Shown here: in pieces, positions 833-6,150 of the stretch
Layout of the letters: each line of letters begins with the position of its first letter
Numbering within the stretch: position 1 is the first letter of the stretch
IMG/VR virus record: IMGVR_UViG_3300032898_000017
Coordinates: 1-22,105 of that record
Strand: one strand, 5' to 3'
Length of the DNA: 22,105 nucleotides
DNA from: a virus
Notes under the pieces: model-generated
Database searches by the model: none
The model's input: only the letters and a program-made list of their open reading frames with translations
Told to the model about the DNA's origin: nothing
Position numbers and translations under genes: made by a program

Positions 833-2239
833 ATGCCAATCCGCCGTATTGACGAAGTGTTTGTGCCCGAAGGCCGGGTCCGCAAAATCATCGACCCGCA
901 AGGGCTCGAAGACCTTATCAAGTCCATCCAGGAGGTGGGGCTGCTGCACCCCCCCGTGGTGGAGGAAAATGGTGCGTTGCTTGCCGGAGAGCGGCGGTTC
1001 CGCGCCCTCCAGTGCATTGCCGAGCGCGGTCTGACCCACCACTGCAACAAAAAGTGGTTGGCCCCCGGCCTCATCATGACGACCGACATCCGGGACCTCA
1101 CCCCGATCCAAAGGCTCCAAGCCGAGATCGAGGAAAACACCATCCGGATCGACATTTCGTGGCAGGAGAAGTCGGAGGCCACCGCGGCGTTGCACGAGCT
1201 TCGGACGATGCAAAAGGCCGAATCGACCCTCCCAGGATTGCCGCCGGTGCCCCAAACCCACGAGCAAACCGCCGCTGAAATTCGGGGCAAGCCGGCGGAG
1301 GAGGTCACCCGGGCCGAAGTCCGGGACGTGAAGGCCGACCTCTACGTCCAGGCGTGGCTCGCGCACCACCCCGGCGACAAGAGCGTTGCCGATGCGAAGT
1401 CCCGGGCCGAAGCCCTCAAGATGATCGAACTCCACCTCGAGGACGAGCATCGTGCCGCCCTGGGCCGCCGGTTCGTCACCCAGCGCCCCGGCAAGGGCCA
1501 CATCATCCAGCGGGCCGACATGTGTCAGGTCCTCCCCGACACCCCCGACAACATTTACGACGTCATCTGCACGGACCCCCCGTGGGGCCGAGGCGCCGAC
1601 GATTGGACCAACGGGACGTCCCTCCGCCGCCACACCTATCAGGACGATTTTCACACCTTCGAGCGAATCCACCTGTGCCTCGCCACCCACGGCTTTCGCG
1701 TTTGCAAACCCAAAGCGCATCTGTATTTGTTCTGCGCCTTCCAAGCGTTTGACGAACTGAGCAAGATGTTCCGCGCCTCGGGCTGGGACGTGTGGCCCCG
1801 TCCCCTCATCTGGTTCCGTCCATCGGGTGGTATTGCCCCCCGGCCCGAGCATGGTCCCCGCAACACCTATGAGTGCATCCTGTTCGCGAACAAGGGAGAC
1901 AAGCGTGTCCTCACCCTCAAGTCCGATGTCCTCATTTACTCTAAACCTGCGGTGGACCTGCGAGCCGCCGGAAAGCCTGTCGGAGTCGTATATGACTTGC
2001 TTTCTCGAAGTGTATTGCCCGGTGACGAGGTGTTGGACCCGTGTTGCGGCAGTGGACCTATCCTGCCGGCCGCAAATGCGCTTAAGTGCCGCGCCACGTG
2101 TTACGACGTCGCGGACGACGCCATTGGCCTCGCCTCCGGCCGGATCGACGAGACCTACGCTCACACTGAAGCCACGGTCTCGTTCCCAACGACCCGGGAA
2201 CGGGCCGGGATGAAGGTGGCAAAGGTGGCGGAGGGTTGA
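833..2239 (+). CDS. ParB-like domain fused to a DNA methyltransferase
   Basis: The start is ATG 833 (468 aa) because AGGGAAAG at 821-828 is a good Shine-Dalgarno; the frame is open further upstream but runs into the previous gene. Residues 1-110 look like a ParB/Srx N-terminal domain, with 'LIKSIQEVGLLHPPVV' and the GERR box at 52-55. A charged helical linker follows. The methyltransferase part carries the catalytic DPPW box at 248-251 and the S-adenosylmethionine site 'LDPCCGSG' at 401-408. The catalytic box before the SAM site is the permuted beta-class order. DPPW favours N6-adenine methylation, though N4-cytosine is not excluded. Phage enzymes of this kind often protect phage DNA from host restriction. 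No restriction nuclease is next to it. It sits 3 bases before the polymerase gene, so the two are probably co-expressed. Confidence 0.85.
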   Translation: MPIRRIDEVFVPEGRVRKIIDPQGLEDLIKSIQEVGLLHPPVVEENGALLAGERRFRALQCIAERGLTHHCNKKWLAPGLIMTTDIRDLTPIQRLQAEIEENTIRIDISWQEKSEATAALHELRTMQKAESTLPGLPPVPQTHEQTAAEIRGKPAEEVTRAEVRDVKADLYVQAWLAHHPGDKSVADAKSRAEALKMIELHLEDEHRAALGRRFVTQRPGKGHIIQRADMCQVLPDTPDNIYDVICTDPPWGRGADDWTNGTSLRRHTYQDDFHTFERIHLCLATHGFRVCKPKAHLYLFCAFQAFDELSKMFRASGWDVWPRPLIWFRPSGGIAPRPEHGPRNTYECILFANKGDKRVLTLKSDVLIYSKPAVDLRAAGKPVGVVYDLLSRSVLPGDEVLDPCCGSGPILPAANALKCRATCYDVADDAIGLASGRIDETYAHTEATVSFPTTRERAGMKVAKVAEG

Positions 2240-2242
2240 ACA

Positions 2243-3967
2243 ATGCCCAATGACACCGTGGATACATTGCTCACTCTCCCGCCCTCCGCCTCCTTCCGCC
2301 CCATCGAGAGCGGGAGTCCATCGTCCCCCATCTGGATCATCGGCGAGGCGCCCGGCGGCGAGGAAATAGCACAACGCCGGCCCTTCGTCGGGGCCAGCGG
2401 CCAACTGCTCACCCAACTATTGCTCGAAACGGGCTTCGCCCGCCATCAATGCTTCATCACAAATGTCTGCCACGAACGCCCGCCCGAGCAGGTCAAGAAT
2501 GGAAAGGTCATCCGGGATGACATCAGTACCTTCTTCCTCACCAAAACCGAGGCCCGACGACGATTGGTATCGGAGGTATTGGGACGTTACCCCTTGCCTC
2601 CCGTGGTGTCCGGCCGTAATCACCTCATCAACCTCCTCGCTCTACATCGTCCCCAACTCATTCTCGCCTTCGGCAACACCGCCCTCTGGGCGCTCACCGG
2701 CCACACCGGCATCCTCAAGTGGCGAGGCTCCGTCCTCACCGCCACCGAAACCCCCCAGCCATTCACCAAGCTGATCCCCACCGCCCACCCGGCGGCCGTT
2801 CTCCGCGAGTACCCCCTCCGCAACATTGTGTTGCAAGACCTCCGCCGGGCCAAGCGCGAGAGCGCCTTCCCCGAGGTCCGCAAGCCGGCGTGGCAATTCA
2901 TCGTCCGCCCCACCGCTGACACCGCCATCGACTACCTCAACGGCCTATTCCGCAGGCTGACGTGGGGGCGCCAGACCTTTGCCTGCGACATCGAAACCCG
3001 CCGGGGCCAGATCGCCTGCGTCGGCATCGCCCAATCGGAAACCGAAGCGATTTGCATTCCCCTCATGTGTGTCGAGCGGTCGGAGGGCTACTTCTCTCCC
3101 GACGAAGAGCGATCCATCATCCTCCTCCTCCGCGCCGTCCTCTCTCACCCCAACGCCCGCATCGTGTTCCAAAATGGCGCCTACGACCTGCAATACTTTG
3201 CCAAGCAATACGGCTTCCTCCCCCGCATCCAGGACGACACGATGCTGATGCAGCATGTGTGCTTTCCCGGCCTGCGAAAGGGCCTCGACTTCCTCTCCAG
3301 CCTCTATTGCCGATACCACCGCTACTGGAAGGATGATGGGAAAACGTGGGACGACTCAATCAACGAGGAACAGCTTTGGACCTACAACTGCGAGGATTGC
3401 GTCCGCACATTTGAATGCTGGCAGGTGTTGACCGAGGTGGTGCGTGCCCGTGGCCTGACCGATCAATACCACTTCCAGATGCAGGAACTGTTCCCCATCG
3501 TCCTCCGAATGATGCTCCGCGGTATCGCCTTCGACAGCGACCGCCGGGCGTCCGTCCAACGTGACCTCGAAGCCTTCCGCCTCAATGCCCAGGACTGGCT
3601 CGATCGCGCCCTCGGCCACACGATCAACGTCGAGTCCTCGGCCCAAATGCAGCGCCTTTTCTACGAGGACCTGCGGGTGCCGACAATATTGCACCGCAAG
3701 ACCAAGCGCCCCACGTTGGACGACGAGGCCCTCGACCGGATTGCCCGCCAACAGCCCCTTTTGGCCCTCCTGATCCAGCACATCCGCGACATTCGCAGCG
3801 CCAACACCGCCCTCGAGAACGTGTTGACCGCCCGCGTATCGCCGGATGGTCGATCCCGCTCCACCATCAACATGGCCGGGGCGGAGACCTTCCGCTTTTC
3901 CTCCTCCGAGGATGCTTTCGGCTTCGGCTTCAACATGCAAAACATCACGAAGGGAGATGAAGCATGA
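2243..3967 (+). CDS. Uracil-DNA glycosylase / 3'-5' exonuclease / N-terminal half of family A DNA polymerase
   Basis: The 574-residue product has three parts. Residues 28-205 resemble a family 4-type uracil-DNA glycosylase: 'GEAPGGEE' at 34-41, 'PFVG' at 47-50 and 'PTAHPAAVLR' at 179-188. The N-terminal CxxC of iron-sulphur family 4 enzymes is absent. Residues 240-400 are a DnaQ/Pol I-type proofreading exonuclease with all catalytic residues: D249 and E251, N311 and D315, Y381 and D385. Residues 410-570 match the Pol I thumb and the start of the palm, ending with 'ETFRFSSS' (R551) and 'NMQNI' (564-568). The frame then stops, so palm motif A, the fingers and motif C are missing here. They are encoded by the separate gene at 4156. 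The two products together would make a full polymerase. The TGA forms an ATGA with the next micro-ORF. The glycosylase could remove or sense uracil ahead of synthesis; that role is inference. Confidence 0.88.
   Translation: MPNDTVDTLLTLPPSASFRPIESGSPSSPIWIIGEAPGGEEIAQRRPFVGASGQLLTQLLLETGFARHQCFITNVCHERPPEQVKNGKVIRDDISTFFLTKTEARRRLVSEVLGRYPLPPVVSGRNHLINLLALHRPQLILAFGNTALWALTGHTGILKWRGSVLTATETPQPFTKLIPTAHPAAVLREYPLRNIVLQDLRRAKRESAFPEVRKPAWQFIVRPTADTAIDYLNGLFRRLTWGRQTFACDIETRRGQIACVGIAQSETEAICIPLMCVERSEGYFSPDEERSIILLLRAVLSHPNARIVFQNGAYDLQYFAKQYGFLPRIQDDTMLMQHVCFPGLRKGLDFLSSLYCRYHRYWKDDGKTWDDSINEEQLWTYNCEDCVRTFECWQVLTEVVRARGLTDQYHFQMQELFPIVLRMMLRGIAFDSDRRASVQRDLEAFRLNAQDWLDRALGHTINVESSAQMQRLFYEDLRVPTILHRKTKRPTLDDEALDRIARQQPLLALLIQHIRDIRSANTALENVLTARVSPDGRSRSTINMAGAETFRFSSSEDAFGFGFNMQNITKGDEA
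3949..3957 (+). promoter_or_regulatory. Strong Shine-Dalgarno for the first micro-ORF
   Basis: GAAGGGAGA lies inside the last codons of the polymerase N-half and ends 6 bases before ATG 3964. It is one of the best ribosome binding sites in the window. It supports translation of the 31-codon micro-ORF that begins in the ATGA overlap. Confidence 0.65.
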
Positions 3968-4059
3968 CCCCCCAACAGTGCCTCGCTGCCCTCCTCTCCG
4001 TCATCCTCGCCCTCCTCGGCACCTACGTCCTCGTCGTCACCCTAACCTTCGGAGGCTAA
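3964..4059 (+). CDS. Micro-ORF 1: 31-aa single-pass membrane peptide
   Basis: ATG 3964 overlaps the TGA of the polymerase N-half (ATGA) and follows the strong Shine-Dalgarno at 3949-3957. The 31-residue product is polar for six residues, then almost wholly hydrophobic (Leu, Ala, Val, Ile) from about 7 to 28, ending in Gly-Gly. This is one predicted transmembrane helix. Codons are mostly C-ending, as in the surrounding phage genes. It lies in the 188-bp gap that separates the two halves of the DNA polymerase. I recognise no family. It could be a membrane tether for the replisome, a small inhibitor or a holin-like peptide; none of these is supported beyond its hydrophobicity. Confidence 0.55.
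   Translation: MTPQQCLAALLSVILALLGTYVLVVTLTFGG
4051..4055 (+). promoter_or_regulatory. Shine-Dalgarno GGAGG for the second micro-ORF
   Basis: GGAGG lies in the last codons of micro-ORF 1 and is separated from ATG 4061 by 5 bases. Its presence argues that the short reading frame downstream is translated and not a chance ORF. Confidence 0.6.
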
Positions 4060-4060
4060 T

Positions 4061-4150
4061 ATGCCCGCCACCTGGTTCACTTTCGGCTTCATCATGGGCG
4101 TCATCGCCACCACCACCGCCGCTGCCTGGTTCCTCTTGCTCCAAGGTTAA
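4061..4150 (+). CDS. Micro-ORF 2: 29-aa single-pass membrane peptide
   Basis: ATG 4061 lies one base after the TAA of micro-ORF 1 and 5 bases after GGAGG (4051-4055). The 29-residue product is hydrophobic from about residue 5 to 27, with several Phe, Trp, Ala and Thr residues, and reads as a single transmembrane helix. It has no charged residue at all. It is unlike micro-ORF 1 in sequence but alike in size and character, so the two may act as a pair. The stop at 4148-4150 is 5 bases before the ATG of the polymerase C-half, and AAGG at 4143-4146 inside this ORF can serve as the ribosome site for that gene. No family recognised. Confidence 0.5.
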   Translation: MPATWFTFGFIMGVIATTTAAAWFLLLQG

Positions 4151-4155
4151 CCCCC

Positions 4156-4911
4156 ATGCCCAAGTTGAAAATGCCCAACCTCCGCCGGATGTTCACCCCA
4201 GACCCCGATCACACGATCTTTGAGGTCGATCTCTCCGGCGCCGACGCCCGGGTTGTCGCGTGGGAAGCCAATGACGCCCCCCTCAAAGCCGCATTCCGCC
4301 AAAAGGTCGATATCCACGCCTTCAACGCCGAGGCAATTTGGCGGAAGGACGCTCCCCTTTCCCACTACAAGGATGATCGTTACCCCGAGCTTAAGAAGCT
4401 ACGGCAGCGCGCAAAAACGGCCATCCACGCCGTCGATTACGGCTGCAAAGAACGGACCCTCGCCGACCATATCCAGGTCTCCGTGACCGAAGCCGGCCGG
4501 TTCATCGACCGATGGTTCACCCTCCACCCCGGCATCCGCCAGTGGCAAAGCAACATCCAGCGCCAACTCTACGCCACATCCTCCGTCACCAATGTTTGGG
4601 GCTATTCCCGGCCCTATTTCGATCGGCCCAGCAGCCTCCTCCCCGACGCCCTCGCGTGGATCGGCCAATCCACCACTGCCATCGCGATCAACAAGCTCAT
4701 CGTCGCCCTCGACAAATCGGGTATCCCCCTCGACATTCTGCTGCAGACCCACGACAGCGTCACCTTCCAGGTATTCACCCCGTTGGTCCCGATCCATCTC
4801 CCGCGGCTGCGCGAACTGTGTCAGGTCACCGTCCCCTACGCCGACCCCCTCATCATGCCCTGCGACATCCAAACATCCGTCTCCTCGTGGGGCGAACTGG
4901 AGGCCGCCTAA
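4156..4911 (+). CDS. C-terminal (palm and fingers) half of family A DNA polymerase
   Basis: The 251-residue product supplies what the gene at 2243 lacks. Motif A is 'DLSGADAR' at 25-32 (catalytic D25; the Pol I Glu is Asp here). Motif B, the O-helix, has R83, K87, H91, Y95 and G96 in the spacing R-x3-K-x3-F-x3-YG of Pol I, with His at the Phe762/Tyr526 position. Motif C is 'QTHDSVTF' with H199 and D200. The protein begins with 'MPNLRRMFTPDP' (6-17), which in unsplit phage polymerases follows soon after the 'NLQNIP' box. The break therefore falls in a loop and loses almost nothing. With no exonuclease or thumb of its own, it must work with the upstream product. AAGG at 4143-4146 is a moderate ribosome site. 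Confidence 0.88.
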   Translation: MPKLKMPNLRRMFTPDPDHTIFEVDLSGADARVVAWEANDAPLKAAFRQKVDIHAFNAEAIWRKDAPLSHYKDDRYPELKKLRQRAKTAIHAVDYGCKERTLADHIQVSVTEAGRFIDRWFTLHPGIRQWQSNIQRQLYATSSVTNVWGYSRPYFDRPSSLLPDALAWIGQSTTAIAINKLIVALDKSGIPLDILLQTHDSVTFQVFTPLVPIHLPRLRELCQVTVPYADPLIMPCDIQTSVSSWGELEAA

Positions 4912-4929: not shown

Positions 4930-6150
4930 ATGGCCCGCCACTTTCCGAATTGGATCACCGCCTATGAGGAATACACGCAGCATTCCGAAGCCCCCCTCGC
5001 TTTCCACCGTTGGACTGCCATCGCCACCATTGCTGGCGCCCTCCGGCGTCGGGTTCGCCTCGAGATGGGCTATTTCCGCTGGTTTCCCAACTTCTTCCTC
5101 TGTTTCGTCGCCCCACCCGGCATCGTCAGCAAGTCCACCACGGCCGACATCGGGATGGCCCTCCTCCGCCGGGTCCCCGGCATCAAGTTCGGACCCGGCG
5201 CCATAACGTGGCAAGCCCTCATCACGAGCCTCGTCGAAAGCCGCGAGGACTTCGCCATGCCCGATGGCACCTTCATGCCGATGTGCGCCATCACGGTCGT
5301 CGCGAGTGAACTCGGCACCTTCATCCAGCCGGGCGACCAATCAATGCTGAATGCCCTAACCCACCTCTGGGACGGGCAGGACGACCCATTCCGCAAGAGG
5401 ACCAAACATGATGGCGAAGAGATCGTTGCAAATCCCTGGATCAACCTCGTCGGTTGCACCACCCCGGCGTGGATCGCGGAGAACTTCAACAACTACTTCA
5501 TCGGGGGAGGCTTCGCGAGTCGGACGTTGTTCATCTTCGCCGAGCACAAAAGGCAGCTGGTTGCCTACCCGGCCGCCAAGATTTCTTCAAAACAGGCGCA
5601 GCTTGGAGATCGCCTTGTTGCAGATCTTGAACAAATTGCTGGCCTCTGTGGAAACTACGTCCTCTCCCCTGACGCTATCCGGTGGGGGGAAGACTGGTAT
5701 GCACGTCACCATTCATCAGATAATCCCCTCCGACTTGATCCTCGGTCCGGAGGCTACTTTGCTCGAAAGCAAACCCACGTTCATAAAACCGCAATGGTTC
5801 TGGCTGCTTGCCAAGGCAACAGTCTCACTATCGAGCGACACCACCTCGAGCAAGCCGTCGAATGGGTGACGGAACTCGAACCCAACATGCTGGCCGTTTT
5901 CGGCGAAATGGGGAAGGAGAAAATCACCGATCAAATGGCCCAGATCCTCAAACACATCCGCGAGGTCGGCCGGGTCCGTCGTCCCGACCTTTACTCGAAG
6001 TTCATAACCCAAATGGGCTACCCAACCTTCAACGATTGCGTTACCGGCCTCCAACAGGCCGGGCTGATCGAATTGGTGCAGGATGCCCAGGGGTTTGTCG
6101 TCAAATACCTCGGCCAGCAAATCGAAATGAAGCTCGAGGCGAAGAAGTGA
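4930..6150 (+). CDS. DUF3987-like P-loop protein, likely replicative helicase
   Basis: The 406-residue product resembles phage DUF3987-type helicase/primase-associated ATPases. Signs are the N-terminal 'HRWTAIATIAGALRRRV' (26-42), a Walker A-like loop 'APPGIVSKST' (61-70) where Ser replaces the usual Gly before the Lys, a Walker B-like strand ending in 'ASEL' (125-128), and 'CTTPAWIAE' (176-184) followed by 'GGGFASR' (192-198), whose Arg may be an arginine finger. The last 80 residues look like a winged helix ('RPDLYSKF', 'GLQQAGLIEL'). It is the last gene of the left block, next to the polymerase, so helicase loading or unwinding is the likely job. A tract at about 5575-5850 uses many more A/T-ending codons than the rest of the gene. 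Its stop is one base from the stop of the convergent gene. Confidence 0.7.
   Translation: MARHFPNWITAYEEYTQHSEAPLAFHRWTAIATIAGALRRRVRLEMGYFRWFPNFFLCFVAPPGIVSKSTTADIGMALLRRVPGIKFGPGAITWQALITSLVESREDFAMPDGTFMPMCAITVVASELGTFIQPGDQSMLNALTHLWDGQDDPFRKRTKHDGEEIVANPWINLVGCTTPAWIAENFNNYFIGGGFASRTLFIFAEHKRQLVAYPAAKISSKQAQLGDRLVADLEQIAGLCGNYVLSPDAIRWGEDWYARHHSSDNPLRLDPRSGGYFARKQTHVHKTAMVLAACQGNSLTIERHHLEQAVEWVTELEPNMLAVFGEMGKEKITDQMAQILKHIREVGRVRRPDLYSKFITQMGYPTFNDCVTGLQQAGLIELVQDAQGFVVKYLGQQIEMKLEAKK

What the first reader, a model, noticed from the sequence alone, without database searches (positions are those of the whole stretch)
3964..4150. Two membrane micro-ORFs with strong ribosome sites inside the polymerase split
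Reading frames of 31 and 29 codons each encode one hydrophobic helix and each follow a near-ideal Shine-Dalgarno (3949-3957, 4051-4055). They are chained by an ATGA and a one-base gap and fill the whole interval between the polymerase halves. Such peptides escape normal gene calling. They may tether replication to the membrane, act on the host, or be the remnant of what split the gene.
Basis: partly seen in the sequence, partly recalled or inferred. Interest (0 to 1): 0.8.

Follow-up and report, generated by a model that had tools for sequence, protein, structure and literature searches.

The report
Two membrane micro-genes in split polymerase
A phage known only from metagenome DNA carries two tiny, probably real membrane-peptide genes wedged between the two halves of its DNA polymerase gene, at a joint where related phages carry nothing or carry quite different genes, so the joint looks like a re-used docking slot rather than a wound left by these two peptides.

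Summary
Two reading frames (3964-4059, 31 codons; 4061-4150, 29 codons) fill the gap between the N-half (2243-3967) and C-half (4156-4911) of a family A DNA polymerase. Each encodes one uncharged hydrophobic helix and follows a strong Shine-Dalgarno. They are very unlikely to be chance: 0 of 20,000 shuffles match, and their codon usage is that of the phage's genes.

Relatives change the interpretation. The nearest phages (L007, L008, L072) have the same split with nothing inserted: N-half stop and C-half start overlap (ATGA or TGATG). So the split is older than the peptides. Micro-ORF 1 sits exactly at the old C-half start and inherited its ribosome site; the C-half is left with the weakest site in the operon (-3.3 versus -8.4 kcal/mol).

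Of 74 related loci, 40 are split at the same loop. Thirty-five of these carry inserts of 73-2097 nt: dUTPase (9), ribonucleotide reductase, a MazG-like enzyme, HNH, methyltransferase or unknown genes. The joint is therefore a recurrent insertion slot, and the micro-ORFs are small recent cargo. No intron was found. I found no homologue of either peptide, so their function (most likely host-membrane acting) is inference. Replication tethering is not supported.

The parts
2243..3967 (+). N-half of split family A DNA polymerase: UDG-like domain, 3'-5' exonuclease, start of polymerase domain; ends ...NMQNITKGDEA*
   Evidence: Pfam PF03167, PF01612, PF00476 (positions 19-132); phrog_17 479-989; junction aligned with relatives
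3949..3957 (+). Shine-Dalgarno (GAAGGGAGA) encoded by the conserved Lys-Gly-Asp codons of the N-half; in L007/L008/L019 the same position serves the C-half itself
   Evidence: sequence; -8.4 kcal/mol, same value as the C-half site of L008 and L019
3964..4059 (+). Micro-ORF 1, 31 aa MTPQQCLAALLSVILALLGTYVLVVTLTFGG; one predicted membrane helix, no charge; starts in ATGA overlap with N-half stop
4051..4055 (+). Shine-Dalgarno GGAGG of micro-ORF 2, inside the last codons of micro-ORF 1
   Evidence: sequence; -9.5 kcal/mol
4061..4150 (+). Micro-ORF 2, 29 aa MPATWFTFGFIMGVIATTTAAAWFLLLQG; one predicted membrane helix with GxxxG, no charge
4143..4146 (+). Weak Shine-Dalgarno (AAGG) left for the C-half
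   Evidence: -3.3 kcal/mol, the weakest of the seven + strand starts tested
4156..4911 (+). C-half of split family A DNA polymerase (motifs A, B, C; palm and fingers)
   Evidence: PF00476 positions 140-342; phrog_17 996-1234; alignment A1
4930..6150 (+). DUF3987 / phage primase-like gene that follows the polymerase
   Evidence: PF13148, phrog_14296 DNA primase 5.5e-76

Best explanation
The polymerase of this phage group is made as two chains, split in a variable loop between the NLQN motif and motif A. The joint is a translational-coupling junction whose ribosome site is written in the last codons of the N-half. The same joint has been filled repeatedly with extra genes. In this phage two microprotein genes were inserted there after the split: micro-ORF 1 took over the exact start position and ribosome site of the C-half, micro-ORF 2 is coupled to it, and the C-half now depends mainly on ribosomes finishing micro-ORF 2, five bases upstream. 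SHOWN: coding signature, chain of overlapping or adjoining starts and stops, same split without insert in the nearest relatives, other cargo at the same joint elsewhere. INFERRED: that the peptides are made, that the two polymerase chains assemble, that coupling drives the C-half, and that the peptides act in the host membrane (as small early phage membrane peptides do) rather than on the polymerase.
For: Coding and chance tests. Same split with ATGA/TGATG overlap and no insert in L007, L008, L072, L019, L020; window + L007 + L008 100%, with L072 94%. 40 split and 34 read-through loci at the same joint, nearly all split tails NLQN..KG(D/E)E-like, heads just before PNxRxxF; 35 with inserts of 73-2097 nt. 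First ATG of the following ORF lies -8 to +1 nt from the N-half stop in 33 of 40, against 21% for any 21-nt span. Cargo: dUTPase in L015, L029, L032, L045, L047, L048, L050, L063, L064; ribonucleotide reductase L036; MazG-like L016; HNH L073, L080; methyltransferase L013; DUF7768 L021, L047. A single split clade is rejected (p-AU 1e-93) and 8 state changes are needed. In an AlphaFold model of the intact relative L011 (mean pLDDT 92) the joint is coil 531-561 with pLDDT about 72-75. No Rfam family, no unusual fold.
Against: No relative with either peptide was found, so neither conservation nor selection on the peptides could be tested. One metagenomic contig is the only source. Membrane location rests on hydropathy alone. 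A host-membrane role is by analogy. The three nearest relatives could in principle each have lost the insert.
Confidence: 0.66

Rival explanations
1. Translational relay only: the peptides have no function of their own; the insert is kept open because ribosomes must pass through it to reach the C-half, and the hydrophobic sequence is incidental.
For: Tight coupling at all three joints and a weak C-half site (-3.3 kcal/mol); no homologues of the peptides.
Against: A relay needs open frames, not two uncharged helices: two chained hydrophobic frames appear in 0 of 20,000 shuffles. The five no-insert relatives manage without a relay.
Confidence: 0.15
2. The peptides tether or regulate the split polymerase at the host membrane.
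For: Position between the two halves and shared translation; a sister phage (L008) has another single-helix micro-ORF coupled directly after the C-half.
Against: L007, L072, L019, L020 have the same split and no such peptide at the joint; most other split loci carry soluble enzymes or unknowns.
Confidence: 0.09
3. The insert is the worn-down remnant of the mobile element (intron, intein or homing endonuclease) that split the gene.
For: HNH genes occur in the same gap in L073 and L080; homing endonucleases split genes in T4-like phages (PMC2988022).
Against: Nearest relatives are split without insert; no intron or Rfam match in the window or in 15 other split loci; no special RNA fold, z +0.73; strong coding signature.
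Confidence: 0.06
4. Chance open frames in a pyrimidine-rich spacer.
For: No conservation could be tested; the C-rich + strand favours Leu, Val, Thr and Ala codons.
Against: Shuffles, codon usage and ribosome sites.
Confidence: 0.04

Closest known systems
Split family A polymerase of OM43 phages MEP401/MEP402 (Zobellviridae; PMC10580990, OP830906)
   Same: Exonuclease plus N-terminal polymerase domain in one ORF, C-terminal polymerase domain in another, one small unknown ORF (77 aa) between, tight spacing.
   Different: Their split lies about 15 residues further on, just before motif A; the ORF is unrelated and charged; the MEP401 N-half starts directly with the exonuclease. The authors suspected an intron.
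Vibrio phage vB_VspS_VS-ABTNL-3 genes PVS_29/28/27 (MF497422)
   Same: Split at the same joint as the window, with an ORF coupled to the N-half stop.
   Different: A 184-aa protein of unknown function (phrog_8380) instead of two membrane peptides.
Split gene 43 of T4-like Aeromonas phages 25 and 44RR, and other homing-endonuclease splits (PMC2988022)
   Same: A phage replicative polymerase encoded as two chains separated by an intercistronic insert; the halves of phage 25 co-purify and are active.
   Different: Family B polymerase; the insert is an endonuclease gene or an untranslated sequence.
Bacterial single-helix small membrane proteins such as 27-aa YohP (PMC7549839)
   Same: Size and single hydrophobic helix.
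   Different: No sequence relation shown; those are host stress proteins.

Membership tests
Split family A DNA polymerase with intervening ORF(s) | N-half with exonuclease and N-terminal part of PF00476; C-half with the rest | tested here: met
Split family A DNA polymerase with intervening ORF(s) | Read-through homologues with the two halves fused at this point | tested here: met
   34 intact loci, e.g. L009-L012, L093, L094
Split family A DNA polymerase with intervening ORF(s) | Two chains assemble into an active enzyme | not testable with these tools
   inferred from conserved halves; shown only for family B of phage 25 (PMC2988022)
Self-splicing intron or intein in a polymerase gene | Group I/II intron RNA recognised by Rfam | tested here: not met
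Self-splicing intron or intein in a polymerase gene | Homing endonuclease in or near the insert | tested here: not met
   no family for either micro-ORF; present only in distant loci L073, L080
Single-helix small membrane proteins | Under about 50 aa, one hydrophobic helix, own ribosome site | tested here: met
Single-helix small membrane proteins | Product found in a membrane | not testable with these tools
   no expression data
Phage holin/antiholin pair | Homology to a holin family or location beside an endolysin | tested here: not met
   no Pfam/PHROG match above threshold for either peptide; neighbours are polymerase and primase. The contig is partial, so lysis genes may lie outside it.

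The most novel reading that the evidence does not exclude
The polymerase joint is a selected cargo slot: because the last codons of the N-half form a ribosome site and the loop tolerates a break, any gene dropped there is made in step with the polymerase. Phages use it for dNTP-pool enzymes (dUTPase inside a polymerase that also carries a uracil-glycosylase-like domain) and here for a two-peptide membrane device acting on the host.
Probability: 0.3. Interest if true: 0.7.

Novelty: new variant of a known kind. Interest (0 to 1): 0.5.

Why it matters
Split phage polymerases with an odd ORF between the halves have been reported case by case and suspected to be introns. Here the same joint is seen in 40 loci, gained or lost several times, empty in the window's nearest kin, and filled elsewhere with dUTPase, ribonucleotide reductase, MazG-like or unknown genes. 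That points to a permissive slot with built-in translational coupling. It also gives a simple rule for finding unannotated phage microproteins: look inside split replication genes.

Tried and rejected
Intron or ribozyme: Rfam on the gap, the window and 15 split loci gave nothing above threshold; RNA fold z +0.73. tRNA: none. Homologues of the peptides: Pfam, PHROGs, tblastn in phages, back-translated patterns in viral contigs (eight FIMGVIA matches, none beside this polymerase) and tblastn in all fetched loci gave nothing convincing; the search for related loci refuses queries this short. Origin of the insert by duplication of the N-half end: a 14/15-nt match (3923-3937 / 4082-4096) is unusual but codon shuffles reach 14 in 1 of 300, and it does not extend. 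'The split recurs there because it is the strongest built-in Shine-Dalgarno': in 22 intact relatives the joint ranks 24th of 779 columns, top 3% but not unique. Programmed -1 frameshift fusing the halves: only L001/L007 has a slippery AAAGGGG; the window and L002 do not (direct reading).

Full report
THE OBSERVATION. Micro-ORF 1 starts inside the ATGA that ends the polymerase N-half, ends at 4059, and micro-ORF 2 runs 4061-4150, leaving five bases to the C-half ATG at 4156. Neither peptide has a charged residue; the best 19-residue hydropathy averages are 2.64 and 1.87. On both strands of the 22 kb they are the only ATG frames of 20-70 codons that combine such a helix with a Shine-Dalgarno of four or more bases, and none of 20,000 dinucleotide shuffles of the gap gives two chained hydrophobic frames. 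Their synonymous codon choice is that of the phage's genes: 97th and 87th percentile of in-frame windows, and higher than all but 0.03% and 0.2% of off-frame windows.

THE SURROUNDINGS. The N-half carries a uracil-DNA-glycosylase-like domain, a 3'-5' exonuclease and the start of the family A polymerase domain; the C-half carries the rest. Upstream lie an SSB-like gene (weak match) and a ParB/methyltransferase gene, downstream a DUF3987 primase-like gene. The other strand carries structural and packaging genes. The window is the whole of a 22,105-base virus record.

WHAT RELATIVES SHOW. In the two nearest relatives (58% and 49% identity in the C-half) the gene is split at the same codon neighbourhood and the halves overlap by ATGA, with no insert. 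The sequence AAGGGAGA(T/C)GA(A/G)..ATGA is the same in layout in the window and in L002/L008 and L019, so micro-ORF 1 stands exactly where the C-half used to start and uses its ribosome site (-8.4 kcal/mol in all three). The C-half of the window is left with -3.3 kcal/mol and a stop codon five bases upstream, which suggests that it now lives on ribosomes coming from micro-ORF 2 (inference).

Wider searches and a uniform scan gave 40 split and 34 read-through loci after removal of repeats. The splits fall in the same loop: tails NLQN-I/L-x-K/S-G-x-E in nearly all, heads a few residues before PN-I/V-RK-x-F. Five have no insert; 35 have 73 to 2,097 bases. The following ATG lies -8 to +1 from the N-half stop in 33 of 40, against 21% for any 21-nt span. 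The loop is also the place where intact relatives vary in length, and in an AlphaFold model of the intact relative L011 (mean pLDDT 92) it is a coil, 531-561, with pLDDT about 72-75, among the least certain stretches of the polymerase domain.

CARGO. Pfam and PHROGs name dUTPase in nine loci (L063 slightly below the curated cut-off), a ribonucleotide reductase, a MazG-like pyrophosphohydrolase, a YfbR-like phosphohydrolase (just below cut-off), HNH endonucleases, a methyltransferase and several families of unknown function. dUTPase inside a polymerase that bears a UDG-like domain makes functional sense (uracil control), but I show only the arrangement.

HISTORY. On a tree of concatenated halves the window groups with L007 and L008 (100% SH-aLRT) and L072 (94%), all split, the other three without insert. 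Split and intact states need eight changes on the tree without the far rows, against at least 15 for shuffled labels, and one single split clade is rejected (p-AU 1e-93; a two-tree test under one model). So the split was gained or lost several times, and the micro-ORFs entered a gene that was already split. The direction of change elsewhere in the tree is not determined.

MECHANISM. Shown: gene order, overlaps, coding signature, absence of recognised introns. Inferred: two separate polymerase chains that assemble, as shown for the unrelated family B polymerase of phage 25 (PMC2988022); co-translation of micro-ORFs and C-half; membrane insertion. For function I commit to small membrane peptides acting on the host during replication-stage expression, at about 40%, because relatives do not need them for the polymerase. 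A mere translational relay is the main rival. A sister phage, L008, has a different single-helix frame (39 aa) coupled by TGATG after its C-half, and short membrane frames sit elsewhere in the replication region of several relatives, which fits loosely attached, exchangeable peptides.

KNOWN OR NEW. A split phage family A polymerase with a small unknown ORF between the halves has been described for OM43 phages MEP401/402, whose authors suspected an intron (PMC10580990); their split is about 15 residues further on. My searches of the held library found no account of a shared joint with varied cargo, but that library is incomplete. The micro-ORF pair has no relative in anything searched.

Noticed in passing
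L015, L029, L032, L045, L047, L048, L050, L063, L064 (gap between polymerase halves): dUTPase gene nested between the two halves of a polymerase that also carries a uracil-DNA-glycosylase-like domain; these loci lie in one clade of the tree.
   Followed up: partly
L036 2047-3768: A 573-aa ribonucleotide reductase sits between the halves of the split polymerase.
   Followed up: partly
L008 about 4782-4901 (L002 5782-5901): A 39-codon single-helix frame (MVTYCALFLCFLAQTVFNVIASHEIGRLKVRVQQLEKGR) overlaps the C-half stop as TGATG.
   Followed up: partly
window 4156-4911: Motif B of the polymerase seems to have His where F/Y/L is usual (R83...K87...H91...Y95 G96) and motif C reads HDS instead of HDE; possibly altered nucleotide selection.
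   Followed up: no
window 3923-3937 and 4082-4096: A 14/15-nt near repeat TTCGGCTTCAxCATG links the end of the N-half with micro-ORF 2; rare in codon shuffles (1 in 300).
   Followed up: partly
window 833-2239: One gene fuses a ParB N-terminal domain to an N6/N4 DNA methylase.
   Followed up: no
L096 6111-8221 (MEP401): The OM43 phage polymerase is split about 15 residues downstream of the joint seen here, directly before motif A: a second break point nearby.
   Followed up: partly
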